DNA from: Glutamicibacter sp. PS
GTDB taxonomy: Bacteria; Actinomycetota; Actinomycetes; Actinomycetales; Micrococcaceae
Length of the DNA: 64,000 nucleotides
NCBI GenBank assembly: GCA_031317595.1
Contig: JANCMB010000001.1
Coordinates: forward strand, 1,854,971 to 1,918,970
Direction: 5' to 3'
Below the pieces are notes generated by a model that had not been told where the DNA came from, ran no database searches, and saw only the letters and a list, made by a program, of their open reading frames with translations. Shown here piece by piece: positions 55,340 to 64,000 of the stretch; the stretch's first letter is position 1; each line of letters begins with the position of its first letter. The position numbers and the translations under genes were made by a program.

Positions 55340-56578
55340 GTGACAGATCGACTTACCGCCTGGGTTGGCCGCATTCGCCCCGTCCCGGGCGGCATGATCT
55401 TCAAGATCTTCATCGTGGCAATCTTGTTATATTCAGCCATCGGTGATCTTCTGGTGGGCGCCGTCCATTTGGATTCCTTCGCAGGCTGGCTCGAGTACGT
55501 GGTCCCCTACGTGCCGCTGGCGATGCTGACAGTCCGGACGCTGCCCAGCGTCATCGCGTGGATCATTGCCTGTTTGTTGATCATCTTTCTCGGCCCGACA
55601 ATCCCGCTCCTCGCGGCATTCGCGATGCCCACCCTGCTGGTGGCAGCCGTGGCCACGGCAACACTTCCACGTGCCGCAGCAATCGGCTTTGCCGGGCTCA
55701 CATTCGCCATGTTGTTGTGGTGCACGCTGGCAGCTCCCGGTGTCGCGCCGGTTGTCGCAATCTTGGCGATGTTGACCGTCTTCTCCATTGCGGCTGGTCT
55801 TGGCCTCAGGACGTTTTGGACAAGGGCCGAGCGCAGCGAACGCCGTGTAGACGAGCTTCGTGAGGCTCAACTGAAGGTGCGTGAACAAGAGCGCACGCTC
55901 TTGGCCCACGAATTGCACGACATCGTCGCTCACGAAGTGACCATCATCGCCATGCAAGCCCGTCGTGCCGAATTCACGAACGACCCGGAGAAAACCTCAC
56001 GCATCCTCTCGGAGATCGGGGATGCCGCATCGCAGACGCTACAAGATCTTCGTAGCCTCGTGCTCCTGCTCAAGGATCACGAATCCGACGGACAGCACGA
56101 CATTCTTGACAGCACCGACGAGGAACAGCGCTTCACTCCCTCCGGCGAAACAACTAATGCCACCGCGTTGGTCCACGATGTCCGCCACGTCGCGGACGCC
56201 ATCGAACGTTCCGGTTATCAGGTATTACTGGAAATCGAGGGACCGGTTTCCGTGCTTGCCACCAGCCTGTGTCAGGTATTGCGCCGCACGGTGCGGGAGA
56301 TCGGCACCAATGTGCTCAAATATGCCGACCCTGCAGAGCAGGTCTCGCTCCGGCTGACGGTACGTGGCGGTCAAGTTACCTTGAGTTCGCGCAACGCTGT
56401 CTCGAAAGAACGTCGACTGACCTCCTCGGGCACCGGGCTGGAGGCTATGCGCACCCGCTGCAAGGTCTTCGGCGGCACCCTCAACACGCACGCTGAGGAC
56501 GGTTTTTGGTCGGTAGCGATCACCCTGCCGTTCAAGGAACAATCACTCGACCCAGCCAATCAAGGAGCTATTTCATGA
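55340..56578 (+). CDS. Histidine kinase (NarL/LuxR-type two-component sensor)
   Basis: A 412-residue sensor kinase. Residues about 20-155 contain five or six membrane helices with very short loops, so it probably senses a small or membrane-inserted ligand. The dimerisation/phosphoacceptor box is ELHDIVAHEVTIIAMQARR (HisKA_3 type) near residue 195. The ATPase domain has REIGTNVLKYADPAEQ as N-box and GTGLEAMRTRCKVFGG as G2-like box. The start is GTG 55340. Its TGA overlaps the ATG of the response regulator (ATGA at 56575-56578). It lies divergent from a small secreted-looking peptide and convergent to a lanthipeptide-like cluster. Confidence 0.9.
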   Translation: MTDRLTAWVGRIRPVPGGMIFKIFIVAILLYSAIGDLLVGAVHLDSFAGWLEYVVPYVPLAMLTVRTLPSVIAWIIACLLIIFLGPTIPLLAAFAMPTLLVAAVATATLPRAAAIGFAGLTFAMLLWCTLAAPGVAPVVAILAMLTVFSIAAGLGLRTFWTRAERSERRVDELREAQLKVREQERTLLAHELHDIVAHEVTIIAMQARRAEFTNDPEKTSRILSEIGDAASQTLQDLRSLVLLLKDHESDGQHDILDSTDEEQRFTPSGETTNATALVHDVRHVADAIERSGYQVLLEIEGPVSVLATSLCQVLRRTVREIGTNVLKYADPAEQVSLRLTVRGGQVTLSSRNAVSKERRLTSSGTGLEAMRTRCKVFGGTLNTHAEDGFWSVAITLPFKEQSLDPANQGAIS

Positions 56579-57252
56579 CCCGTGTTTTGCTCGTAGATGA
56601 TGAACCGATGACCCGAGAAATCCTCAAGGACTACCTCGGTTCCGACCCCAGTATTGAAGTGGTGGGCGAGGCCGCCGATGGGCTTGCCGCAGCAAAACAG
56701 GCAACAGCTTTGAGCCCCGATGTCATTTTGATGGATATGCAGATGCCGCGGGCCGACGGTGTACAGGCGACGGCCGCCATCCACACCCGTCACCCCGAGA
56801 TTCGCATTCTCGGACTCACCACTTTTGCCACGGACCGTTATGTGGTCGATCTGCTCCGTGCCGGTGCCTCCGGATACCTTGTGAAGGACACCAAACCGCA
56901 GGAAATTATCGCGGCGGTGCACGCGGTGGCCAACGGCGATTCGGTGCTCTCCCCCGAGGTGACGCGATTTGTGGTGAAGGGCCTGGAGGAGTCTGTGCCT
57001 TCGCATGTCCAGCCCGATGAGCAGCTACTGGCCGCGCTCAGCGATAAAGAGCTCGAGGTCATCCAACTATTGGCGCGCGGCAAAAACAACCGCGAGATGA
57101 GCCAGGAATTATTCGTCACGGAATCTACGATCAAGGCCCGTTTCGTGAGAATCATGGAGAAACTCGGCGTCCGTGACCGGGTACAGATCTTGGTGCTCGC
57201 CGCTCAAAACGGATTGGTAGATCTCGGCAAGAACCCAAGTTCGCTAGCCTAG
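56575..57252 (+). CDS. LuxR/NarL-type response regulator
   Basis: A 225-residue response regulator. The receiver domain has the acidic pair in LLVDDEPMTRE, the phospho-acceptor Asp in VILMDMQMPRADG, and the conserved Lys in GYLVKDTKPQE. The C-terminal HTH is LuxR type (LSDKELEVIQLLARGKNNREMSQELFVTESTIK). ATG 56575 has AAGGAG eight bases upstream and overlaps the kinase stop. It converges with the M16-like gene of the RiPP cluster after 18 bases. Its targets may include that cluster or the divergent peptide gene; nothing in the sequence proves it. Confidence 0.93.
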   Translation: MTRVLLVDDEPMTREILKDYLGSDPSIEVVGEAADGLAAAKQATALSPDVILMDMQMPRADGVQATAAIHTRHPEIRILGLTTFATDRYVVDLLRAGASGYLVKDTKPQEIIAAVHAVANGDSVLSPEVTRFVVKGLEESVPSHVQPDEQLLAALSDKELEVIQLLARGKNNREMSQELFVTESTIKARFVRIMEKLGVRDRVQILVLAAQNGLVDLGKNPSSLA

Positions 57253-57270: not shown

Positions 57271-58209
57271 TTACCGTTCGGGGTGCCCCAGCACTTCGCG
57301 GATCGGTCTGCCCAGTTGCCCGAGCGCCTGAGCTAGCTCGGCTCCGCTGACATTTCGTACCAATGCGGGATCCTGTATGAGCTCACCTCCCCAACCCATC
57401 GCCGCGTATTCCGCCAGAGTGCCAACCAGCGACGTGGGCGAGAGCCATGCACGACAGAGATTGGCGTAGGCGAAACGCAAGATATGCTCGGGCGCGGCCT
57501 GTGCGCGCTGAGCCATCACCGTAAGAACTTCGAGCACGAGGTCGAGGGCCTGCAAACTCGATTCGGCTCGAGTGATCACCGTCCACTCGATACTCGGTGA
57601 GCCGTGCTGCGTTCGCCGTGACAACGCCACTTGCGACGGGTCGCCGGCCGCTTTGAGAGCTGCCTGCACATCCGGTGCTCCCGCAGCCATGACCGCACAG
57701 AGCGCGGCAAAGGTAGCCGCAGATCCGATAGTGCCTGCCGGGTCAGCTCCGGTAATCGTGCTTTGCTCATATCCGGCCTCTCTGCGCTGGGACAGCATGC
57801 TACGAGTAGGCTCCGGTAGTGGAAGGGCTACACCGGGAAATTGCTCGGCCAGCTCGGACACCGCCTCGATGCTTGCGGCCGCACCGGCTTGGGCCAGCAC
57901 CACCGGCACCGTCGAAGGCAACGCATTCAACACCGGGTATAGGGCCTCGATGGACCAACGTTGCGCCTGAGCGTTGGGCACGACCAACTGGAACCGATGT
58001 ATCTGAGCACCCGGGCTCCACTGGTGCTCTACGATCCATGGTTCAACCGCGTCGGATTGCACCACTGAGGTGAGCTGTTCCTGCAATCGGGCCGGGCTCC
58101 ATCCTTGGTCGCTGGCTGATTCGGCCGAAATCGCCAGTGACAGGGCGGCGTAATCGCCACGGTCATCTTGCACAGATAAATGTTCTCGGGTGCTCGGTAT
58201 TGCGTTCAC
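57271..58209 (-). CDS. M16-like peptidase partner without zinc motif
   Basis: A 312-residue protein with the look of an M16 peptidase half but no HxxEH, so it cannot bind zinc in the usual way. M16 enzymes often work as a pair of one catalytic and one substrate-holding chain, and it follows the catalytic M16 gene directly. Start GTG 58209 is chosen because AGGTGG sits just before it; ATG 58224 overlaps the previous stop but has no ribosome site of its own. It is the last gene of the RiPP cluster. Its role is probably leader removal with its partner. Confidence 0.7.
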   Translation of the reverse strand: MNAIPSTREHLSVQDDRGDYAALSLAISAESASDQGWSPARLQEQLTSVVQSDAVEPWIVEHQWSPGAQIHRFQLVVPNAQAQRWSIEALYPVLNALPSTVPVVLAQAGAAASIEAVSELAEQFPGVALPLPEPTRSMLSQRREAGYEQSTITGADPAGTIGSAATFAALCAVMAAGAPDVQAALKAAGDPSQVALSRRTQHGSPSIEWTVITRAESSLQALDLVLEVLTVMAQRAQAAPEHILRFAYANLCRAWLSPTSLVGTLAEYAAMGWGGELIQDPALVRNVSGAELAQALGQLGRPIREVLGHPER

Positions 58210-58220
58210 GGGTCCACCTT

Positions 58221-59471
58221 TCATGACGCAAAACGGATGGTGAGCGTGGCCATGGGCTGGCCCGCCAGTCGCTGGCACGATTCGTCGATCAGGGTCTTCG
58301 AACGCTGGATGTCCTGACGCAAGCCGCCCAGCTGGGCACTCAGGTGCAGGGTGAACTCCGGGCAATCGCGCAACACCAGATCGCGGGCGACGGTACGGAC
58401 CAGGCGTTCGTCGTCGACGACGAACTTTTGGGCACGATAGTGAGCTCGGCGCACCGCCTGCTGCACTTTCTCTTCCTTGGCCGTACTCACCGCCCGCAGC
58501 CGCTCGGCTGGATCAAGAGTGAAATTCGTGTCATCGATCAGGACAAAAAGATCCGGCAACGTGCTGTCTCCGAGTCCGAAAATACCCGCCGCAGCATCGA
58601 TTCCTGGCTGGCCGGCCAAGAGCTCGGCGGTGAGCGTATCGCCAAGGAACGCATCGGTTACCGTACGCGCCGGCGCGGCCTGTGTCACCGCAATCAGCCG
58701 GTGCCGGTCACCGTGCCCGTGCTGATCGTGTGGAGGGTTAGGCGCGGCACGCGGCGTACGAAGTGGCTCAGACTCGGTGTCCTGGGCAGTCACCGTCACC
58801 TCGGCCATCACGTCGGCCAACTCAACGACGGTCTCCAGCGGATCACGGGGCGTCAGGGCAACCAGAACGCAGTGTTCGGGGCGGTAGTACCGCCGATGGA
58901 TACGTCGAAGTTGCTCCGCATGGACCCGCCCACGCAGGTCGGTGTCTCCGCTGCCGTCATGTCCGGAGCCGTAGTCGCTCCAGTAAAGGCCCGTCAGGTG
59001 TGGCCAGGGTAGCCGCTGCCCGGGAACGCCGTGCAGGCGATGCGCGCGTTCGGCCGCAACTGCCTGAATCTGCTCCTCGATCTGGTTCTCGCTTAAACGC
59101 GGGTAGAAAACCTGCTCAATGAGGCGTCGCGCCACCGGTGTGGCGGAGCCGACCGGTCCAGTTTCGTAGAACTCGGTGTAGTCCATATGCGTGTTACCGC
59201 CCAAGGTGCCACCGGCTGCGGCGACGGTGCGTTGGCGTTCAAGACCACCGATCTGTGCGCTGTCTTGATAGACCAGGTGTTCGATCAGGTGCATGGTGCC
59301 GTGCTCCATCGCCTGTTCATGCCGCATCCCGGCCGGTATGGTCAACGACAGACTGAGATTCTTGGCGCGCGGATCGGAAATCGCCAACACGCGGGCCCCC
59401 GAAGGCAGAGTGCATTGTTTGGCCTCGAGCCCGCGGAGCGTCAGGTTATCGATAGTTGGTGCGCAGCTCAT
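58221..59471 (-). CDS. M16 family zinc peptidase
   Basis: A 416-residue M16 metallopeptidase. The inverted zinc motif is HLIEH (His61, Glu64, His65), and the third ligand is Glu141, 75 residues after the second His, the usual M16 spacing. The second half lacks such residues. ATG 59471 has GGAGGAG five bases upstream and overlaps the previous stop (ATGA). Pairs of M16 peptidases remove leader peptides in several lanthipeptide systems, and here the pair lies directly behind the maturation genes. It therefore probably cuts the leader of the four precursors. Confidence 0.85.
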   Translation of the reverse strand: MSCAPTIDNLTLRGLEAKQCTLPSGARVLAISDPRAKNLSLSLTIPAGMRHEQAMEHGTMHLIEHLVYQDSAQIGGLERQRTVAAAGGTLGGNTHMDYTEFYETGPVGSATPVARRLIEQVFYPRLSENQIEEQIQAVAAERAHRLHGVPGQRLPWPHLTGLYWSDYGSGHDGSGDTDLRGRVHAEQLRRIHRRYYRPEHCVLVALTPRDPLETVVELADVMAEVTVTAQDTESEPLRTPRAAPNPPHDQHGHGDRHRLIAVTQAAPARTVTDAFLGDTLTAELLAGQPGIDAAAGIFGLGDSTLPDLFVLIDDTNFTLDPAERLRAVSTAKEEKVQQAVRRAHYRAQKFVVDDERLVRTVARDLVLRDCPEFTLHLSAQLGGLRQDIQRSKTLIDESCQRLAGQPMATLTIRFAS

Positions 59472-60322
59472 AACCACTCCTCCTGCTGTGGGTGATCAAG
59501 ATAGTTCAGGGCTTCGGTGATCAGTAGTTGTGCGTGCGGTAGCGCAGCACCGGCATAGTGGTGCCAATCGAAGGCGTGCTGGACTAGTCGATAGGCGATG
59601 CCGGTGCGCAGATGTTGGGGGTCTAGATCCGCTCCGTAACCCTGTGCGATGCCGCTGCGCAGCCGGTACAGCGCCGGTCGCCGGGAAGGGTAGAAGGCCG
59701 CTAGTTCGGCTAGTTCTCCGTAGATCCAGGCGAGGTCGTAAGCCGGGTGTGCCAAGCCGGTGTCTTCCCCGGTGAGCAGGGCACCGGCGGTTGCTTCCTC
59801 GTTCAACGTCCAGTGCGCCATCCCTGGGCTACCGTGGACGAAGATCGTCTCCGGGGTGTGCGGACCAATGTGCTGTGCCCAGCGTTCAAGCTGGGCTGCA
59901 CGGCGAGCGCCAAGAACGTCTAGCATCGGCCGCCACCGGCCGGTGATCCAGCGCTCGGCCCGTAGTAGGGTCCGTGGGGCCTGGCCTTCGAGGCCGGATC
60001 GTTTCTGCTCATGCACCGCGCGCACGGCCTGACCCCAGAGCAATCCGATTTTTTCCAGCGTGGCGGGCCGCGCCACCGGCAGGATCTCTGTCAGGCCCTG
60101 GGTGGTACAGGTCCTATAGGACCGCTCGGTGGTGCTTCCATGCCCCCAGCACACACCGTCGCGGTCGATCCGTTGTATGGGTAGCTCGACGAAATCTCGC
60201 GGAGCGTCCGTCCCCAGACGGTGGATCCACCGTGCGCCGGCCCCTTCTTGGGTGACCATGGTTTCGAGCAGTCCGGTGCGCGCTGTGCGCAGCACCTGTT
60301 CCGCCGGTGCACAAGGCATCAT
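59468..60322 (-). CDS. APH-fold protein lacking catalytic aspartates (pseudokinase)
   Basis: A 284-residue protein with the aminoglycoside phosphotransferase fold. The catalytic motif normally HGDxxxxN reads HGSPGMAHW, and the metal-binding LLDWEE segment reads LLTGED, so both key aspartates are replaced; the following GLAHPAYDLAWIYGEL keeps the family pattern. It is therefore probably inactive as a kinase and may bind peptide or regulate its partner. The ATG overlaps the flavoprotein stop (ATGA). A second APH-fold protein of unknown exact role is also found in class V lanthipeptide and thioamitide clusters, to which it may correspond. Confidence 0.75.
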   Translation of the reverse strand: MMPCAPAEQVLRTARTGLLETMVTQEGAGARWIHRLGTDAPRDFVELPIQRIDRDGVCWGHGSTTERSYRTCTTQGLTEILPVARPATLEKIGLLWGQAVRAVHEQKRSGLEGQAPRTLLRAERWITGRWRPMLDVLGARRAAQLERWAQHIGPHTPETIFVHGSPGMAHWTLNEEATAGALLTGEDTGLAHPAYDLAWIYGELAELAAFYPSRRPALYRLRSGIAQGYGADLDPQHLRTGIAYRLVQHAFDWHHYAGAALPHAQLLITEALNYLDHPQQEEWL

Positions 60323-60954
60323 GCGCTACGTTCCTCGCTCACTTGTTGGTGAGTGGTTCGGTGCTCTTCCAGTCGCCGTAGCACATCGGGAAGTAGCGGG
60401 GGGATCCAGGCTAGCGCGGTGTCACTGGATTCGCTGGGGCCGGGCACCGGATCGATGACAATAAAGTTCTTTGGTTTCCGAAGCCGTTCGAAGACCTCAC
60501 GAACCAGTGGGTTATCCCAAGAGCGCGGCGGCAAGGACGGGGCGATGCAGACCACGGCTTCAGTGGAGAGCGCGGCAAGTAGCGACGGGGATTCGGTGAC
60601 ACAGTGGGAAAGTTTGGCGGAATAGTCCAGCGTGGCCGGGTAAATGATGATCAGTTCGGCCCACTCGGCCAATTCGATGTGACTGGCAATGATCTCGTCT
60701 TCCCAGCAATCGTCTTGGACGTGTGCGCGTAGCCGCGATTCAAGGTTGTGCCGTGTGGTGAAGCGATAGGCGGTTTCGCGGACGATAACCCGGAATTCCG
60801 TGTTCGGTGCCGCTGCTCGGGCCCACTCGATCCAGTACGGCATCGCCTGGGTCATGGCCGAACCGGTCAGCACCAGCGCAACGCGTGAGTACCCGAAGCT
60901 TTCGAGACTTACAGCCGAGATCGTAGCCCGGGTGGAGTTCTTGGTGTGGCTCAT
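60319..60954 (-). CDS. Flavoprotein cysteine decarboxylase (LanD-like, HFCD family)
   Basis: A 211-residue flavoprotein of the HFCD family, which includes phosphopantothenoylcysteine decarboxylases and the peptide decarboxylases EpiD/MrsD/TvaF. Family marks are LVLTGSAMTQAMPYWIEWAR near the N-terminus, the central ELIIIYPATLDYSAKLSHC region in which a catalytic segment lies, and an APSLPPRSWDNP loop. In RiPP clusters it oxidatively removes the C-terminal carboxyl group of cysteine so that an aminovinyl-cysteine ring can form. All four precursors in the cluster end in Cys, which fits exactly. ATG 60954 has an AAGG site. Confidence 0.8.
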   Translation of the reverse strand: MSHTKNSTRATISAVSLESFGYSRVALVLTGSAMTQAMPYWIEWARAAAPNTEFRVIVRETAYRFTTRHNLESRLRAHVQDDCWEDEIIASHIELAEWAELIIIYPATLDYSAKLSHCVTESPSLLAALSTEAVVCIAPSLPPRSWDNPLVREVFERLRKPKNFIVIDPVPGPSESSDTALAWIPPLLPDVLRRLEEHRTTHQQVSEERSA

Positions 60955-61001
60955 GGCCTTGCCCTTCTGCAGCGGTTCGTTCTGTGTGGTGTGAGTGCCT
61001 G

Positions 61002-61031
61002 AGCGGGCACCGGTGCTGACCGGCGCCCGCT
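61002..61031 (-). terminator. Hairpin between precursor genes and maturation genes
   Basis: A 13-bp stem with one mismatch (61002-61014 with 61019-61031) and loop GCTG lies 17 bases past the last precursor stop and before the flavoprotein gene. No T-run follows. It looks like a partial terminator or RNA stabiliser, letting precursor mRNA exceed enzyme mRNA. Confidence 0.65.
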
Positions 61032-61047
61032 GAGACTTTCGGTGTGG

Positions 61048-61218
61048 CTAGCAGCCCACGGTGAGAGTGGCCCCGATGACGACGCCAGCGCAGAACGGGC
61101 TAGTCGCCGGTGCCTCGGTGGCGGCCTCGCCGCCGATTTCGGCCGCGGTGGTGAAGGTGTCGTGGCCGGCAGCGAGTTCGGAGAGGCTGGCGGTGGTGGC
61201 TGGAGTGTTGGTGGTCAT
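61048..61218 (-). CDS. RiPP precursor peptide A (core type 1)
   Basis: A 56-residue precursor. The leader contains SLSELAAGHDTFTTAAEIGG and EAATEAPA; the core region is TSPFCAGVVIGATLTVGC. The chain ends in Cys directly before a TAG. Thr, Ser and two Cys in the core could give a small thioether ring (S-P-F-C) and a C-terminal aminovinyl-cysteine ring from T-L-T-V-G-C. AGGGA precedes ATG 61218. It is the last of the four precursors and nearest to the flavoprotein gene. Its core is identical to that of peptide C. Confidence 0.85.
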   Translation of the reverse strand: MTTNTPATTASLSELAAGHDTFTTAAEIGGEAATEAPATSPFCAGVVIGATLTVGC

Positions 61219-61313
61219 GGTGGGTTTTCCCTTCGGTTGTTCCTGTTACTGAATGCACCTAGAAGCGTGATCGCATGGGTGCGAGATGAATGATGTGGTG
61301 TTCGTGCAGGTGC

Positions 61314-61481
61314 TTAGCAACCGGCGCCGAGGGTTGCCCCGACGATGACGCCGACGCAGAAGGGGCTGGTGGCTGGCGATTCGGTGGCGGCCTCGCCGCC
61401 GATTTCGTCCGCGGTGGTGTAGGTGTCGTGGCCGGCAGCCAGGTCGGAAAGGCCAGCGGCGGTGATCTGGGTGTTGCTCAT
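61314..61481 (-). CDS. RiPP precursor peptide B (core type 2)
   Basis: A 55-residue precursor. The leader holds GLSDLAAGHDTYTTADEIGG and EAATESPA; the core region is TSPFCVGVIVGATLGAGC. Compared with peptides A and C, the core swaps Ala-Gly-Val-Val-Ile for Val-Gly-Val-Ile-Val and LTVGC for LGAGC. ATG 61481 has AAAGGA upstream. Its end is TAA, unlike the TAG of the other three. It pairs in order with peptide A. Confidence 0.85.
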   Translation of the reverse strand: MSNTQITAAGLSDLAAGHDTYTTADEIGGEAATESPATSPFCVGVIVGATLGAGC

Positions 61482-61573
61482 CTGCGAATCCTTTGGTTAG
61501 TTGTGTTGCGTGAGAATGCACCTAAATACGTTGTCGTGCCGGTGCGAGGTGATGGATGTGGTGAAGGGAGTGC

Positions 61574-61741
61574 CTAGCAGCCCACGGTGAGGGTGGCGCC
61601 GATGACCACTCCGGCACAGAACGGGCTGGTCGCTGGTGCCTCGGTGGCGGCCTCGCCGCCAATCTCGGCTGCGGTGGTGTAGGTGTCGTGGCCGGCGGCC
61701 AGCTCGGAGAGGCCGGCACTTGGGTTCTGGATGTTGTTCAT
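61574..61741 (-). CDS. RiPP precursor peptide C (core type 1)
   Basis: A 55-residue precursor. The N-terminal 8 residues differ from peptide A, the following leader is the same except for Tyr in place of Phe at GHDTY, and the core TSPFCAGVVIGATLTVGC is identical. ATG 61741 has AAAGGAATC upstream; an in-frame ATG at 61774 lies before this site and is rejected. Identical cores in two copies would raise the dose of one product. Confidence 0.85.
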   Translation of the reverse strand: MNNIQNPSAGLSELAAGHDTYTTAAEIGGEAATEAPATSPFCAGVVIGATLTVGC

Positions 61742-61816
61742 CTGTGATTCCTTTGGTTGTGTGTTGCGGTGCACCGTCGGTGTGGTGCGAGGTGATGTGA
61801 GTGTTGTGGTGTTGTT

Positions 61817-61993
61817 CTAGCAGCCGGCGCCGAGGGTGGCGCCGACGATGATGCCGACACACAGCGGGCTGGTGGCTGGTGCCTCGGTGGCGGCGTCTGC
61901 ACCGATCTCGGCGGCGCTGGTGAAGGCGTCGTGGCCGGCAGCCAGGTCGTTCAGGCCCTGCACGTTGGATTCGTTGAGGTTAATGGCGGTCAT
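61817..61993 (-). CDS. RiPP precursor peptide D (core type 2)
   Basis: A 58-residue precursor and the most divergent. The leader is GLNDLAAGHDAFTSAAEIGA with DAATEAPA, the core is TSPLCVGIIVGATLGAGC, close to peptide B but with Leu before the first Cys and Ile-Ile-Val. ATG 61993 has AAAGGA six bases upstream. It is the first of the four, 79 bases behind the HopA1-like lyase gene. The conserved leader segment LAAGHD and AAEIG in all four is the probable enzyme-recognition part. Confidence 0.85.
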   Translation of the reverse strand: MTAINLNESNVQGLNDLAAGHDAFTSAAEIGADAATEAPATSPLCVGIIVGATLGAGC

Positions 61994-62071
61994 GGTGTTC
62001 CTTTCGTTGTGGCCGGTGCTCCGGCCGGTGGGTGGGTTTCCCCAGCGTCGCTGGGAAATCTGTGGCGGACG

Positions 62072-63013
62072 CTATCGGTTCAGGTTGCGTCCGGGATTAT
62101 GTGGGTCGATTCGAGCCTGGTTGGCGGCTTGTTGCCATACGTCGCGCAGCGTGGTTCCGCTGCGGGCCGAGCTCAGGAGCGCTTCGGCCAGTACCCGTGA
62201 TCGGTGTTGTCCGAAGCTCAGTCCCCGGTAGGCCGGGCGCGGGTCGACCGGCTCCTGTGCGGTGGCGAGTTGGCCGCCCAGTGCCTCGGTAAATATCGAG
62301 GTGGGTGTCGTCGCGCGGTGCGGCCCGGCGAGAGCTTCTTCGCAGATCATGTGCACGGCGTTCACCTCGGTCCGCGGGAGGTAGAGGACGATGGCGTCCG
62401 ATCGCGGGTGGCTGGCCGCGGTGGAAAGTGCCTTGGCCTGGTACCCACAACCGGTGGCATTTAGCGCCTGGAGCAGCGGGCCCCAGTACCGCACGGTATC
62501 CGATGCCGAGCTTGAGGAGATGTAAATCCGGCTGATCTCCCCCGGGCCGGGTCCGTGCTCGCCAAGCGCGAGAACGTAGCCCGGTGTGGTGTTAGTGCGG
62601 TAGCTAGGAAAGTACGCCCCGGTGATCGTTCCTTGTGCATCACGGACCAGGTGTTCGGGGTGGATCAGGACCTTGAGTCCGGCCACGTCTACCGGGGTCG
62701 GTGAGCCCGTCTCGGCCAGCTGTAGGCCTAGCGCAGCCACCGGCTGGTACACCTGACGGTGCGGGATCTCTGCGATGAGGCGTTCGACGAGTTCGGGTTC
62801 GCCGGTCGGTGGTGTTTGCGCAGCGGTCTCCGAGTGCCTGATGTGAAATTTCCGGTAGATGGCCGCCGACAACTCGGCCCGCAGTTCCGCCTCGCTGCCG
62901 GCCTGAATCCGTTCGGAGCCAACCGTGGCAGCGGTACCGTTCGCCGCGACCGCAAGCTCGATCTCGTCGAGTACATCGAGGAAGTTCTGGGTGAGGCAGA
63001 TGCTACTACTCAT
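62072..63013 (-). CDS. HopA1-like lyase (class V lanthipeptide-type)
   Basis: A 313-residue protein resembling the HopA1 effector family, as used by class V lanthipeptide synthetases to eliminate phosphate from phospho-Ser/Thr. The residues IYRKFHIRHSE near 60-70, PSYRTNTTPGYVLALGEHGP near the middle, and AYRGLSFGQHRSRVLAEALL near the C-terminus fit that family's pattern. ATG 63013 has GAAGGA eight bases upstream; a far longer frame upstream is a shadow of the kinase gene. It lies 13 bases behind the kinase gene and just ahead of the precursors. With the kinase it would make dehydro-residues. Confidence 0.8.
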   Translation of the reverse strand: MSSSICLTQNFLDVLDEIELAVAANGTAATVGSERIQAGSEAELRAELSAAIYRKFHIRHSETAAQTPPTGEPELVERLIAEIPHRQVYQPVAALGLQLAETGSPTPVDVAGLKVLIHPEHLVRDAQGTITGAYFPSYRTNTTPGYVLALGEHGPGPGEISRIYISSSSASDTVRYWGPLLQALNATGCGYQAKALSTAASHPRSDAIVLYLPRTEVNAVHMICEEALAGPHRATTPTSIFTEALGGQLATAQEPVDPRPAYRGLSFGQHRSRVLAEALLSSARSGTTLRDVWQQAANQARIDPHNPGRNLNR

Positions 63014-63026
63014 TGGTGTCGTTCCT

Positions 63027-64000
63027 TCAGAATCCCAGGGCCACACGATAGGCGGCCGGAGCGAGTAGAATTTTCCGCCCGATGCCGGCGGCGGCTCGTT
63101 CAATACCCGGCAGCCGGGAGACGGTCGCGGCTCGGGCGATGGTTCGATCCACCAAGTGCCATCCCAGGTGCGCGGTGGCACGCAGGGCGAGCTCGGGATC
63201 GTCGCGCTTGGCTTCGCGTCGATAGGCCTGCCACATCTGGCTGATGCGTGGGGCGAGGTGTTCCATGCGTTCGGTGATGCGCCGGGTGGCGCTGGCCGCA
63301 TCGAAACTCAGTGGTGGGGCTCCGGCTCCGCCGCGACTGGTGACGGTGTCGAGCACCGCGCGATAGATCCATTCGCCGGCGAAGGTTCCCAGGTCGCGGG
63401 CCGGATCTCCGAGGCCGAATTCTTCCCAGTCCAGCAGCACCGGGCGGCCGTCGCTGAGGTGGAACTGATCAAGTCGCAAATCTCCGTGGATGGGGGCTAC
63501 CTGATATGCCGCCTCCCAGGCCCGAAGTTCCTCGGCGGCGGTTACCAGCGCCTGATCCTCTTGCAGTTGTGGCCACAGGGCCAGCTCGGCCAGCGTGAAT
63601 CGTACATAACGCTCTTGTGAGACCCCGTGGCGCAGCATCTGCGTGGGTGGACTCGGGTGATAGCTGGCGGTGAGCCCGTCGGTGGGAGCCCGATGAAGGC
63701 GTGCCATGCGGCGTCCGGCTTGTGCGGCAAAGTCTTCCGGGATTGCTTCCCGGATCAGCAGTTCGGCAAGGTTGATTCCACCGCAGTGTTCGAAGATCAA
63801 CAATCCGTCGGCTTTGCGGTGGGCGATCAGTTGAGGGCTAAGTGGTGCCAGTGCGCTATGGCGCTGGGAGAACTCGGCGAAGGCCACTGAGCGTTCGAAG
63901 GCTCGGTCCCCGGAGACCTCCGCCGAGATGTGTTTGACGAAGATACGCTGCCCCGAGGTCAGGCTCATGCTCCAGGCGCCGTTGCGGCCGTTGAATGCTG
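63027..64000 (-). CDS. APH-fold kinase of the RiPP cluster, N-terminus outside window
   Basis: The frame stays open to the window edge, so the start is missing; 323 residues are seen. It has the aminoglycoside phosphotransferase fold with the catalytic loop HGDLRLDQF and the metal-binding LLDWEEFGLGDPARDLG, both aspartates intact; the usual Asn of the loop is Gln. The N-lobe lysine appears in RIFVKH. In class V lanthipeptide clusters such a kinase phosphorylates Ser/Thr of the precursor before elimination by the HopA1-like lyase, which is the next gene, 13 bases on. Drug phosphorylation is a less likely role in this context. Confidence 0.85.
   Translation of the reverse strand, partial: AFNGRNGAWSMSLTSGQRIFVKHISAEVSGDRAFERSVAFAEFSQRHSALAPLSPQLIAHRKADGLLIFEHCGGINLAELLIREAIPEDFAAQAGRRMARLHRAPTDGLTASYHPSPPTQMLRHGVSQERYVRFTLAELALWPQLQEDQALVTAAEELRAWEAAYQVAPIHGDLRLDQFHLSDGRPVLLDWEEFGLGDPARDLGTFAGEWIYRAVLDTVTSRGGAGAPPLSFDAASATRRITERMEHLAPRISQMWQAYRREAKRDDPELALRATAHLGWHLVDRTIARAATVSRLPGIERAAAGIGRKILLAPAAYRVALGF

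What the first reader, a model, noticed from the sequence alone, without database searches (positions are those of the whole stretch)
57271..64000. Class V lanthipeptide-like gene cluster in a Micrococcaceae-type chromosome
Seen: APH-fold kinase, HopA1-like lyase, four small Cys-ended precursors, HFCD flavoprotein, APH-fold pseudokinase and an M16 pair, all on one strand, tightly packed and partly overlapping. Known: kinase plus HopA1-like lyase plus flavoprotein are the marks of class V lanthipeptides (lexapeptide, cacaoidin) and occur in thioamitide clusters. Inference: the locus makes a thioether peptide with a C-terminal aminovinyl-cysteine. Such clusters are mainly described from streptomycetes, so a version with four short precursors in this group may be new.
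Basis: partly seen in the sequence, partly recalled or inferred. Interest (0 to 1): 0.95.

Follow-up and report, generated by a model that had tools for sequence, protein, structure and literature searches.

The report
Paired class V lanthipeptide gene cluster
An actinobacterium carries a complete gene set for making two related, very small, double-ringed peptides of a recently defined antibiotic-like family (class V lanthipeptides), and the same pair of peptides is kept in related bacteria of two other genera, which suggests that the two may work together.

Summary
Window 57271-64000 is most of a class Va lanthipeptide cluster: the kinase passes NCBI's LxmK cut-off, all four short ORFs pass the LxmA-leader cut-off (no other site in the genome does), the lyase is HopA1/LanY with its catalytic residues, the flavoprotein is CypD/LanD-like, the APH pseudokinase folds like TvaE (a LanX homologue), and P1/P2 are an active/inactive M16 pair. 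No YcaO or LanC gene passes its cut-off anywhere in the genome. The unit is larger than stated: an ABC transporter lies beyond 64000, and a convergent histidine kinase/response regulator (55340-57252) belongs to it. In the window's genus 8 of 18 genomes carry the cassette; so do three Rothia genomes and one of a third genus, in at least five neighbourhoods. New here: precursors encode two 18-residue core types, A and B. Cores are conserved by type across genera while leaders are most alike within each genome; 9 of 10 readable clusters keep both. Predicted products resemble massatide without methylation or reduction. Joint action is inferred, not shown, and was already suggested for sistertides. 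New member of a known kind.

The parts
63027..64000 (-). LanK, Ser/Thr kinase of class V (LxmK type); start codon lies outside at window-equivalent 64124
   Evidence: NF038156 LxmK equivalog 347.8 bits vs cut-off 315; PDB 9dk1_A E 1.3e-50; R47, K64, D215, Q220, D232 invariant in 13 of 13 aligned kinases
62072..63013 (-). LanY, HopA1-like phosphoSer/Thr lyase
   Evidence: PF17914 E 1.4e-25; PDB 9dk1_B E 1.3e-23; H57, R162, K194, R204 invariant in 13 of 13
61817..61993 (-). precursor A1 (58 aa), core TSPLCVGIIVGATLGAGC
   Evidence: NF038146 LxmA_leader 36.7 bits, cut-off 25
61574..61741 (-). precursor B1 (55 aa), core TSPFCAGVVIGATLTVGC
   Evidence: NF038146 33.9 bits (searched without its Met codon)
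61314..61481 (-). precursor A2 (55 aa), core TSPFCVGVIVGATLGAGC (A-type ring 2, first part partly B-like)
   Evidence: NF038146 32.4 bits
61048..61218 (-). precursor B2 (56 aa), core identical to B1
   Evidence: NF038146 30.5 bits
60319..60954 (-). LanD, HFCD flavoprotein peptidyl-cysteine decarboxylase
   Evidence: PF02441 E 5e-09, over its cut-off; CypD model 59.9 bits, below that model's equivalog cut-off of 215; PDB cypemycin decarboxylase 6jdd and MrsD 1p3y
59468..60322 (-). LanX, kinase-fold AviMeCys cyclase (pseudokinase)
   Evidence: PF01636 exactly at cut-off; AlphaFold model pLDDT 87.1, best PDB match TvaE with leader peptide 8jsu, E 8.8e-10; catalytic and Mg Asp positions not Asp in 13 of 13
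58221..59471 (-). P1, active M16B peptidase subunit, likely leader removal
   Evidence: PF00675 E 6.1e-13; HxxEH at residues 61-65; PDB 3amj active subunit
57271..58224 (-). P2, M16-fold partner subunit, probably inactive
   Evidence: no Pfam match at E 0.01; no HxxEH; AlphaFold model pLDDT 84.6, PDB matches M16-fold chains incl. TTHA1264/1265 and PA0372
56575..57252 (+). response regulator (REC + LuxR/GerE), convergent to the operon
   Evidence: PF00072, PF00196; next to P2 in the nine complete related loci and two split ones, 67-73% identical
55340..56578 (+). histidine kinase (HisKA_3), about 5 hydrophobic stretches
   Evidence: PF07730; close homologue in exactly the 8 of 18 genus genomes that have LanK; hydropathy

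Best explanation
It is a complete class Va lanthipeptide locus. K phosphorylates Ser/Thr of the core and Y eliminates phosphate, giving Dhb/Dha. Cys5 adds to Dhb1 (TSPxC motif) to give an N-terminal methyllanthionine ring. D oxidatively decarboxylates the C-terminal Cys18, and X guides the enethiol onto Dhb13 to close an AviMeCys ring. The P1/P2 M16 heterodimer removes the leader after ...PA, and the T1/T2 ABC transporter exports the peptide and/or protects the cell. The histidine kinase/response regulator probably controls the operon through a dyad (CTGTAC-N4-GTACAG type) about 67 bp upstream of T2. The cluster makes two kinds of small, uncharged, very hydrophobic bicyclic peptides, A and B, which I expect to be membrane- or cell-wall-active bacteriocins. 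Shown by computation: gene identities, catalytic residues, leader and ring motifs, conservation, dyad position. Inferred: chemistry on these substrates, cleavage point, regulation, activity.
For: LxmK equivalog and LxmA leader models over their cut-offs. PDB chains of the lexapeptide LxmK/LxmY complex as best sequence relatives. CaoY R187/K219/R229 (PMC9486802, passages) map with a constant offset of 25 onto R162/K194/R204 (mapping by spacing, mine), invariant in 13 of 13. X's best fold match is TvaE bound to leader, and it lacks both kinase Asps in 13 of 13, as described for RosX (PMC12291118, parts 1-3 of 6). Core ring spacings are those of massatide A (Thr1-Cys5; Thr n to Cys n+5; PMC11162475 section 7) and cacaoidin (passages). 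Leader positions -17 (Phe/Tyr), -12 (Glu), -3 (Ala; Ser in A2), -2 (Pro) agree with the type-A leader rules in PMC9486802, which points to Thr1 as core start. Same gene order in nine complete related loci, and in two more that are split over contigs. No LanC match in the genome. My mass arithmetic returns massatide's published 817.8965.
Against: No product has been detected. D does not reach the CypD equivalog cut-off, Y matches no NCBIfam model and X only just reaches PF01636. There is only one ABC transporter where the rosin cluster has three transporter genes. Position -17 is Phe in two of the window's four precursors, although Tyr is reported as fully conserved in known type-A leaders.
Confidence: 0.9

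Rival explanations
1. Same chemistry, but A and B are independent products (two separate bacteriocins, or a substrate-tolerant pathway making a small library) with no joint action.
For: Kebanetides A1 and A2 from one class V cluster are each active alone (PMC11162475 section 9); G014 has only one precursor; window A2 and the G014 core are intermediate in sequence; in the window itself leaders are only 81-89% identical at DNA level, so homogenisation is weak there.
Against: 9 of 10 clusters with a readable precursor region, in the window's genus and two others, keep both types, with an A first and a B last; leaders are most alike within a genome while cores group by type.
Confidence: 0.45
2. 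The peptides are signals or self-produced envelope modulators sensed by the adjacent histidine kinase, not mainly antibiotics.
For: Histidine kinase/response regulator co-inherited with the cassette; core sequence far more conserved than most of the enzymes; rosin A1 showed no antibacterial activity on the strains tested (PMC12291118).
Against: Autoinducing antibiotics also carry such systems (recalled); the transporter and patchy distribution fit a bacteriocin; nothing here tests activity.
Confidence: 0.15
3. Thioamitide or linaridin cluster rather than class V lanthipeptide.
For: Kinase, HopA1-like, HFCD and APH-pseudokinase genes are shared with thioamitides; X's best fold match is TvaE.
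Against: No YcaO match over the cut-off in the whole genome (one partial 19.9-bit match 93 kb away, cut-off 25.7); TfuA was not searched for by itself. K passes the class V LxmK equivalog; the core has the N-terminal (S/T)2-x-x-Cys lanthionine motif.
Confidence: 0.02
4. A decayed, non-functional cluster.
For: None seen in the window; one Rothia MAG (G191) has a disrupted X frame and a disrupted first precursor.
Against: The window frames are open with catalytic residues in place and core residues strongly conserved.
Confidence: 0.02

Closest known systems
Rosins (ros cluster, class Va; PMC12291118)
   Same: several A genes, K, Y, D, X, two M16B peptidases, ABC transporters; Lan plus C-terminal AviMeCys with Thr to Cys i+5; no N-methyltransferase (one of 151 such clusters counted there)
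   Different: ros has the F420H2 reductase RosJ, three transporter genes and a 25-residue RosA1 core with nine dehydrations; here no reductase, one ABC transporter, 18-residue cores with 3-4 Ser/Thr, and a linked two-component system
Massatide A (mat cluster; PMC11162475 section 7)
   Same: 17-residue core, Thr1-Cys5 MeLan and Thr12-Cys17 AviMeCys; almost the same ring layout and size
   Different: massatide is N,N-dimethylated and has three reduced residues; core less hydrophobic (GRAVY 0.88 against 1.48-1.57)
Sistertides/kebanetides and pristinins (class V with two or more precursor types; PMC11162475 sections 8-9, PMC7794033 passages)
   Same: one enzyme set, two precursor types; joint action of sistertides A1 and A2 suggested by the authors; pristinin authors note that two distinct precursor genes are typical of two-component lanthipeptides
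   Different: sistertide and kebanetide types differ in length and number of rings; here A and B have the same length and ring layout and differ at a few positions
Cacaoidin (PMC8068269, passages)
   Same: leader pattern and N-terminal ring at core positions 1-5, AviMeCys at the C-terminus
   Different: 23-residue core, glycosylated and N-dimethylated; [quoted passage not shown]
Thioviridamide-type thioamitides (TvaE/TvaF)
   Same: LanX/TvaE-like pseudokinase and HFCD protein
   Different: no YcaO here; lanthionine motif present

Membership tests
Class Va lanthipeptide | stand-alone LanK kinase (LxmK) | tested here: met
   NF038156 equivalog over cut-off; catalytic residues invariant in 13 of 13
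Class Va lanthipeptide | LanY of the HopA1 family (PF17914) | tested here: met
   E 1.4e-25, over gathering score; lyase residues invariant in 13 of 13
Class Va lanthipeptide | LanD flavoprotein cysteine decarboxylase | tested here: met
   PF02441 over gathering score; CypD, MrsD, EpiD structures among the relatives; CypD equivalog cut-off not reached
Class Va lanthipeptide | LanX: kinase fold without kinase catalytic residues | tested here: met
Class Va lanthipeptide | no LanC-type cyclase (separates Va from Vb) | tested here: met
   no LANC_like match (PF05147) at E 0.001 in the whole genome
Class Va lanthipeptide | LxmA-type leader and core with C-terminal Cys | tested here: met
   NF038146 over cut-off for all four
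Class Va lanthipeptide | product with (Me)Lan and AviMeCys | not testable with these tools
   needs mass spectrometry and NMR; motifs and spacing are present
Thioamitide | YcaO/TfuA thioamidation genes | tested here: not met
   no YcaO (PF02624) match over cut-off in the genome; one partial 19.9-bit match 93 kb away; TfuA not searched by itself, none among the proteins scanned
Two-component lanthipeptide | two distinct, conserved precursor types in one cluster | tested here: met
   9 of 10 clusters with a readable precursor region
Two-component lanthipeptide | synergy of the two peptides | not testable with these tools
   needs purified peptides
Two-component lanthipeptide (class II type) | one synthetase per precursor | tested here: not met
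   one K/Y/D/X set in the cluster

The most novel reading that the evidence does not exclude
The cassette encodes an obligate two-peptide class V lanthipeptide: A and B are different-sequence, same-topology, 18-residue bicyclic peptides that act as a pair, and selection has kept the two cores apart across three genera while gene conversion keeps their leaders matched to each lineage's own enzymes.
Probability: 0.4. Interest if true: 0.6.

Novelty: new member of a known kind. Interest (0 to 1): 0.42.

Why it matters
It gives a compact (10.8 kb) class Va cassette from Micrococcaceae, including Rothia, with a massatide-sized scaffold and no linked methyltransferase or reductase. That makes it a handy system for testing AviMeCys formation by LanX and for asking whether class V lanthipeptides really work as pairs, a point so far only suggested for sistertides. 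The contrast between leader and core evolution is natural evidence that the leader follows the enzymes and the core follows its target.

Tried and rejected
Thioamitide reading: rejected. Rfam at gathering threshold on the 19 kb locus L002: no match. Operator upstream of the histidine kinase: a two-mismatch site sits 78 bp upstream in the window, but the window has two such sites with 0.88 expected, and none of 11 relatives has a site with two mismatches or fewer in the 250 bp there (G017 has one with three), so I treat it as chance. Operator upstream of K, D or T1: best matches have 4 or more mismatches. Orphan immunity in non-producers: of the 10 genus genomes without the cluster, 4 have no T1 match at E 1e-20 and 6 have one at 31-32% identity. 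Plasmid linkage: LxmK homologues on 28 plasmid records; the 20 listed are at most 37.6% identical, against 45-58% among the cassette kinases; 8 lower-ranked records, one of them Arthrobacter, were not listed, and records near this genome may be left out. D: three Streptomyces plasmids at E 1e-20. One common insertion site: rejected, flanks differ. Promoter/terminator scan: nothing clearly above shuffles. Genus name not established; the only named relatives are Rothia. Searches for lexapeptide with Micrococcaceae genera and lanthipeptide with Rothia or Glutamicibacter were seen as listings, with passages read in three of their papers; PMC11162475 does not name Rothia, Arthrobacter, Glutamicibacter or Kocuria in its main text. 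PMC10449522 shows a predicted Rothia aerolata lanthipeptide cluster in a figure that I could not see; 'class V' does not occur in its text, so I cannot say whether it is this one.
Full report
WHAT IS THERE. Reading the minus strand, the window ends inside a kinase gene (full frame window-equivalent 63027-64124) followed by a HopA1-like gene (62072-63013), four ORFs of 55-58 codons (61993 down to 61048), a flavoprotein (60954-60319), an APH-like protein (60322-59468), an M16 peptidase (59471-58221) and a further protein P2 (58224-57271). Beyond 64000 come an ABC permease and an ABC ATPase on the same strand, then an XRE-cupin regulator, an EamA transporter and genes of unrelated function. Left of the operon and convergent with it are a response regulator and a histidine kinase.

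IDENTITY OF THE GENES. The kinase scores 347.8 bits against NCBIfam NF038156 (class V lanthionine synthetase subunit LxmK; cut-off 315), and all four short ORFs pass NF038146 (LxmA leader; cut-off 25); in the whole genome the four are the only sites over that cut-off. The nearest solved structures by sequence are the kinase and lyase of the lexapeptide complex (9dk1). The five LxmK residues named in PMC12291118 (Arg49, Lys66, Asp221, Gln226, Asp241) correspond to R47, K64, D215, Q220 and D232, invariant in 13 of 13 aligned kinases; the correspondence is mine, from motif order and spacing. In the lyase, R162, K194 and R204 keep the spacing of CaoY Arg187, Lys219 and Arg229 and are invariant in 13 of 13. 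X has no Asp at either kinase Asp position in 13 of 13 aligned proteins; its AlphaFold model (mean pLDDT 87.1) best matches TvaE bound to its leader peptide (8jsu, E 8.8e-10), with LxmK at rank 36. PMC12291118 (parts 1-3 of 6 read) reports that RosX, a LanX protein, controls closure of the AviMeCys ring. P1 carries HxxEH. P2 has no Pfam match, but its model (pLDDT 84.6) matches M16-fold chains, as expected of the inactive half of a heterodimer; the three Rothia P2 proteins do contain an H-x-x-E-H string at residue 25, which I take as chance but did not test. No LanC-like match exists in the genome at E 0.001 and no YcaO match over its cut-off.

CORE PEPTIDES. The alignment of 20 precursors and the cacaoidin boundary (passages) place the core at TSPxC... 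Counting back, Phe/Tyr-17, Glu-12, Ala-3 (Ser in A2) and Pro-2 agree with the class V leader rules in PMC9486802 (passages). The cores are 18 residues, uncharged and hydrophobic (GRAVY 1.48-1.57). Thr1-Ser2-x-x-Cys5 fits the (Dha/Dhb)2-x-x-Cys lanthionine motif of PMC12291118, and Thr13 to Cys18 has the spacing of the AviMeCys rings of rosin, massatide and cacaoidin. Massatide A (PMC11162475 section 7) has the closest known layout. With all Ser/Thr dehydrated and the C-terminus decarboxylated, the neutral masses are 1530.805 (A1), 1550.774 (A2) and 1576.789 (B1 = B2); the same arithmetic gives the published massatide value. No reductase or methyltransferase gene is in the unit; lack of the methyltransferase alone is not new (151 of the 851 clusters in PMC12291118).

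DISTRIBUTION. LxmK at E 1e-40 or better occurs in 14 of 395 genomes sampled from the family: 8 of the 18 in the window's genus and 6 of the other 377. Twelve of the 14 are this cassette (8 in the genus, G078 of another genus, three Rothia); G383 and G227 carry other arrangements. The ten complete loci (window included) have the order T2-T1-K-Y-A(n)-D-X-P1-P2 and then, convergent, RR-HK; two more (G016, G017) are split over contigs at the precursors and agree on both sides. In G191 the X frame is disrupted. Flanks of about 3.6-4.7 kb fall into at least five groups; a few protein matches at 30-33% between groups, and at 46% between G191 and the other Rothia, remain. I conclude that the unit of inheritance runs from T2 to HK. 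Close HK homologues (40-47% identity, E 4e-77 or better, besides the window's own) occur in exactly the 8 genus genomes with LxmK; the other 10 have only paralogues at E 3e-31 or weaker. For T1 the 8 have 59% or more; of the 10, 6 have a match at 31-32% and 4 have none. Precursor-profile searches of samples gave 3 of 396 order genomes (own, G078, one weak) and 5 of 394 class genomes (own and four weak); at most 16 candidates per genome were scored. Of the five weak genomes I opened two (G558, G1077): their cores are of other types, those of G1077 longer and sistertide-like. The other three match only the leader part.

THE A/B PAIR. Ten genomes have a readable precursor region; nine encode both a TLGxGC (A) and a TLTxGC (B) core, with an A first and a B last; G014 has a single B-type precursor with an intermediate core. 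For 24 precursors of these ten genomes, leader identity (28 residues) averages 0.91 between A and B of one genome but 0.65 between the same type in different genomes, while core identity averages 0.63 and 0.87 (the 19-residue G318 A core drops out of the core figures). One disrupted G191 ORF was left out. To limit circularity, types were taken from ring 2 and only core residues 1-12 compared across lineages: same-type identity 0.837, A against B 0.560; 2 of 5000 within-genome label shuffles reached the difference (2592 distinct labelings). For leaders the difference was 0.008, reached by 262 of 5000 (22 of 23 rows used, the G318 A core dropped; G014 not included). These genomes fall into five lineages, so they are not independent. 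At DNA level the G010 leaders of A1, A2 and B are identical in all 28 codons while A and B cores are 70% identical; in G191 the values are 99% and 65%. The contrast is weaker elsewhere: in the window itself leaders are 81-89% and cores 72-87% identical, and in G078, G015 and G318 A/B leaders are about 85-86%. Between genomes, same-type leaders are 52-79% identical at DNA level in the pairs listed. Gene conversion of leaders with selection holding the cores apart explains the strong cases best. Synonymous identity of cores between genomes is also high and may reflect codon bias. Also against a clean dichotomy, window A2 and the G014 core mix A and B residues.

REGULATION. A dyad CTGTAC-N4-GTACAG, picked out by eye from these same upstream regions, lies 64-70 bp upstream of T2 in 12 of 12 loci (0-1 mismatch in 9, 2 in the three Rothia); single-base shuffles of each 250-base region did as well in 0-3 of 200. 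It is not seen upstream of K, D or T1, nor upstream of HK in 11 relatives. Taken alone, the single site in L002 at up to two mismatches is not unusual (54 of 200 shuffles have one). In the 18 genus genomes sites with at most one mismatch number 1 to 5 per genome, about as many as the backward control (0 to 5), but each of the 8 cassette genomes has one at T2, and in the own genome it is the only one. I propose it as the response-regulator site; binding is untested.

WHAT IS KNOWN. Class V is established (PMC7794033, PMC8068269 and PMC9486802 as passages; PMC12291118 parts 1-3); 851 putative class Va clusters were counted in taxid 1760, so this is a new member. Multi-precursor class V clusters are known, and the sistertide authors suggest that A1 and A2 act together (PMC11162475 section 9); the pristinin authors note that two distinct precursor genes are typical of two-component lanthipeptides. 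An antiSMASH class V call in Paenarthrobacter is in print. Among the papers returned by my searches I saw no description of this cassette or of the A/B cores, but most were seen only as listings, and supplements could not be read.

VERDICT. The finding is correct, and the unit is more complete than stated. In its enzymes it is an ordinary member of a recently defined family; it is a good test case for two-peptide class V action.

Noticed in passing
L002:9216-9231 (window-equivalent 66245-66260): Conserved dyad of the CTGTAC-N4-GTACAG type 64-70 bp upstream of the ABC ATPase gene in 12 of 12 related loci; likely operator of the linked response regulator.
   Followed up: yes
window 55340-57252: Histidine kinase/response regulator pair, convergent with the operon, present beside the cassette in the ten complete loci and two split ones.
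   Followed up: yes
L034:8772-8921 and L034:10979-11371: Rothia MAG (G191) has a disrupted first precursor frame and a disrupted X frame; assembly error or decay.
   Followed up: no
L037:8963-9121: Rothia G318 A-type precursor has a 19-residue core with an extra residue between the two rings.
   Followed up: no
L038 (G383): A genome of another genus carries a different class V cluster with ORFs that by eye look like a methyltransferase and a luciferase-like oxidoreductase, two precursor-like ORFs without a C-terminal Cys and one with it.
   Followed up: partly
L035:6945-7112 (G227): Divergent LxmK/HopA1/flavoprotein locus with a 55-aa Cys-ended ORF that lacks the TSPxC motif; possible different AviCys peptide.
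   Followed up: no
L058:8244 onward (G558): LxmA-like precursor near a response regulator and D- and P1-like genes in another family of the order; core of a different type, no K or Y match in the 18 kb fetched.
   Followed up: no
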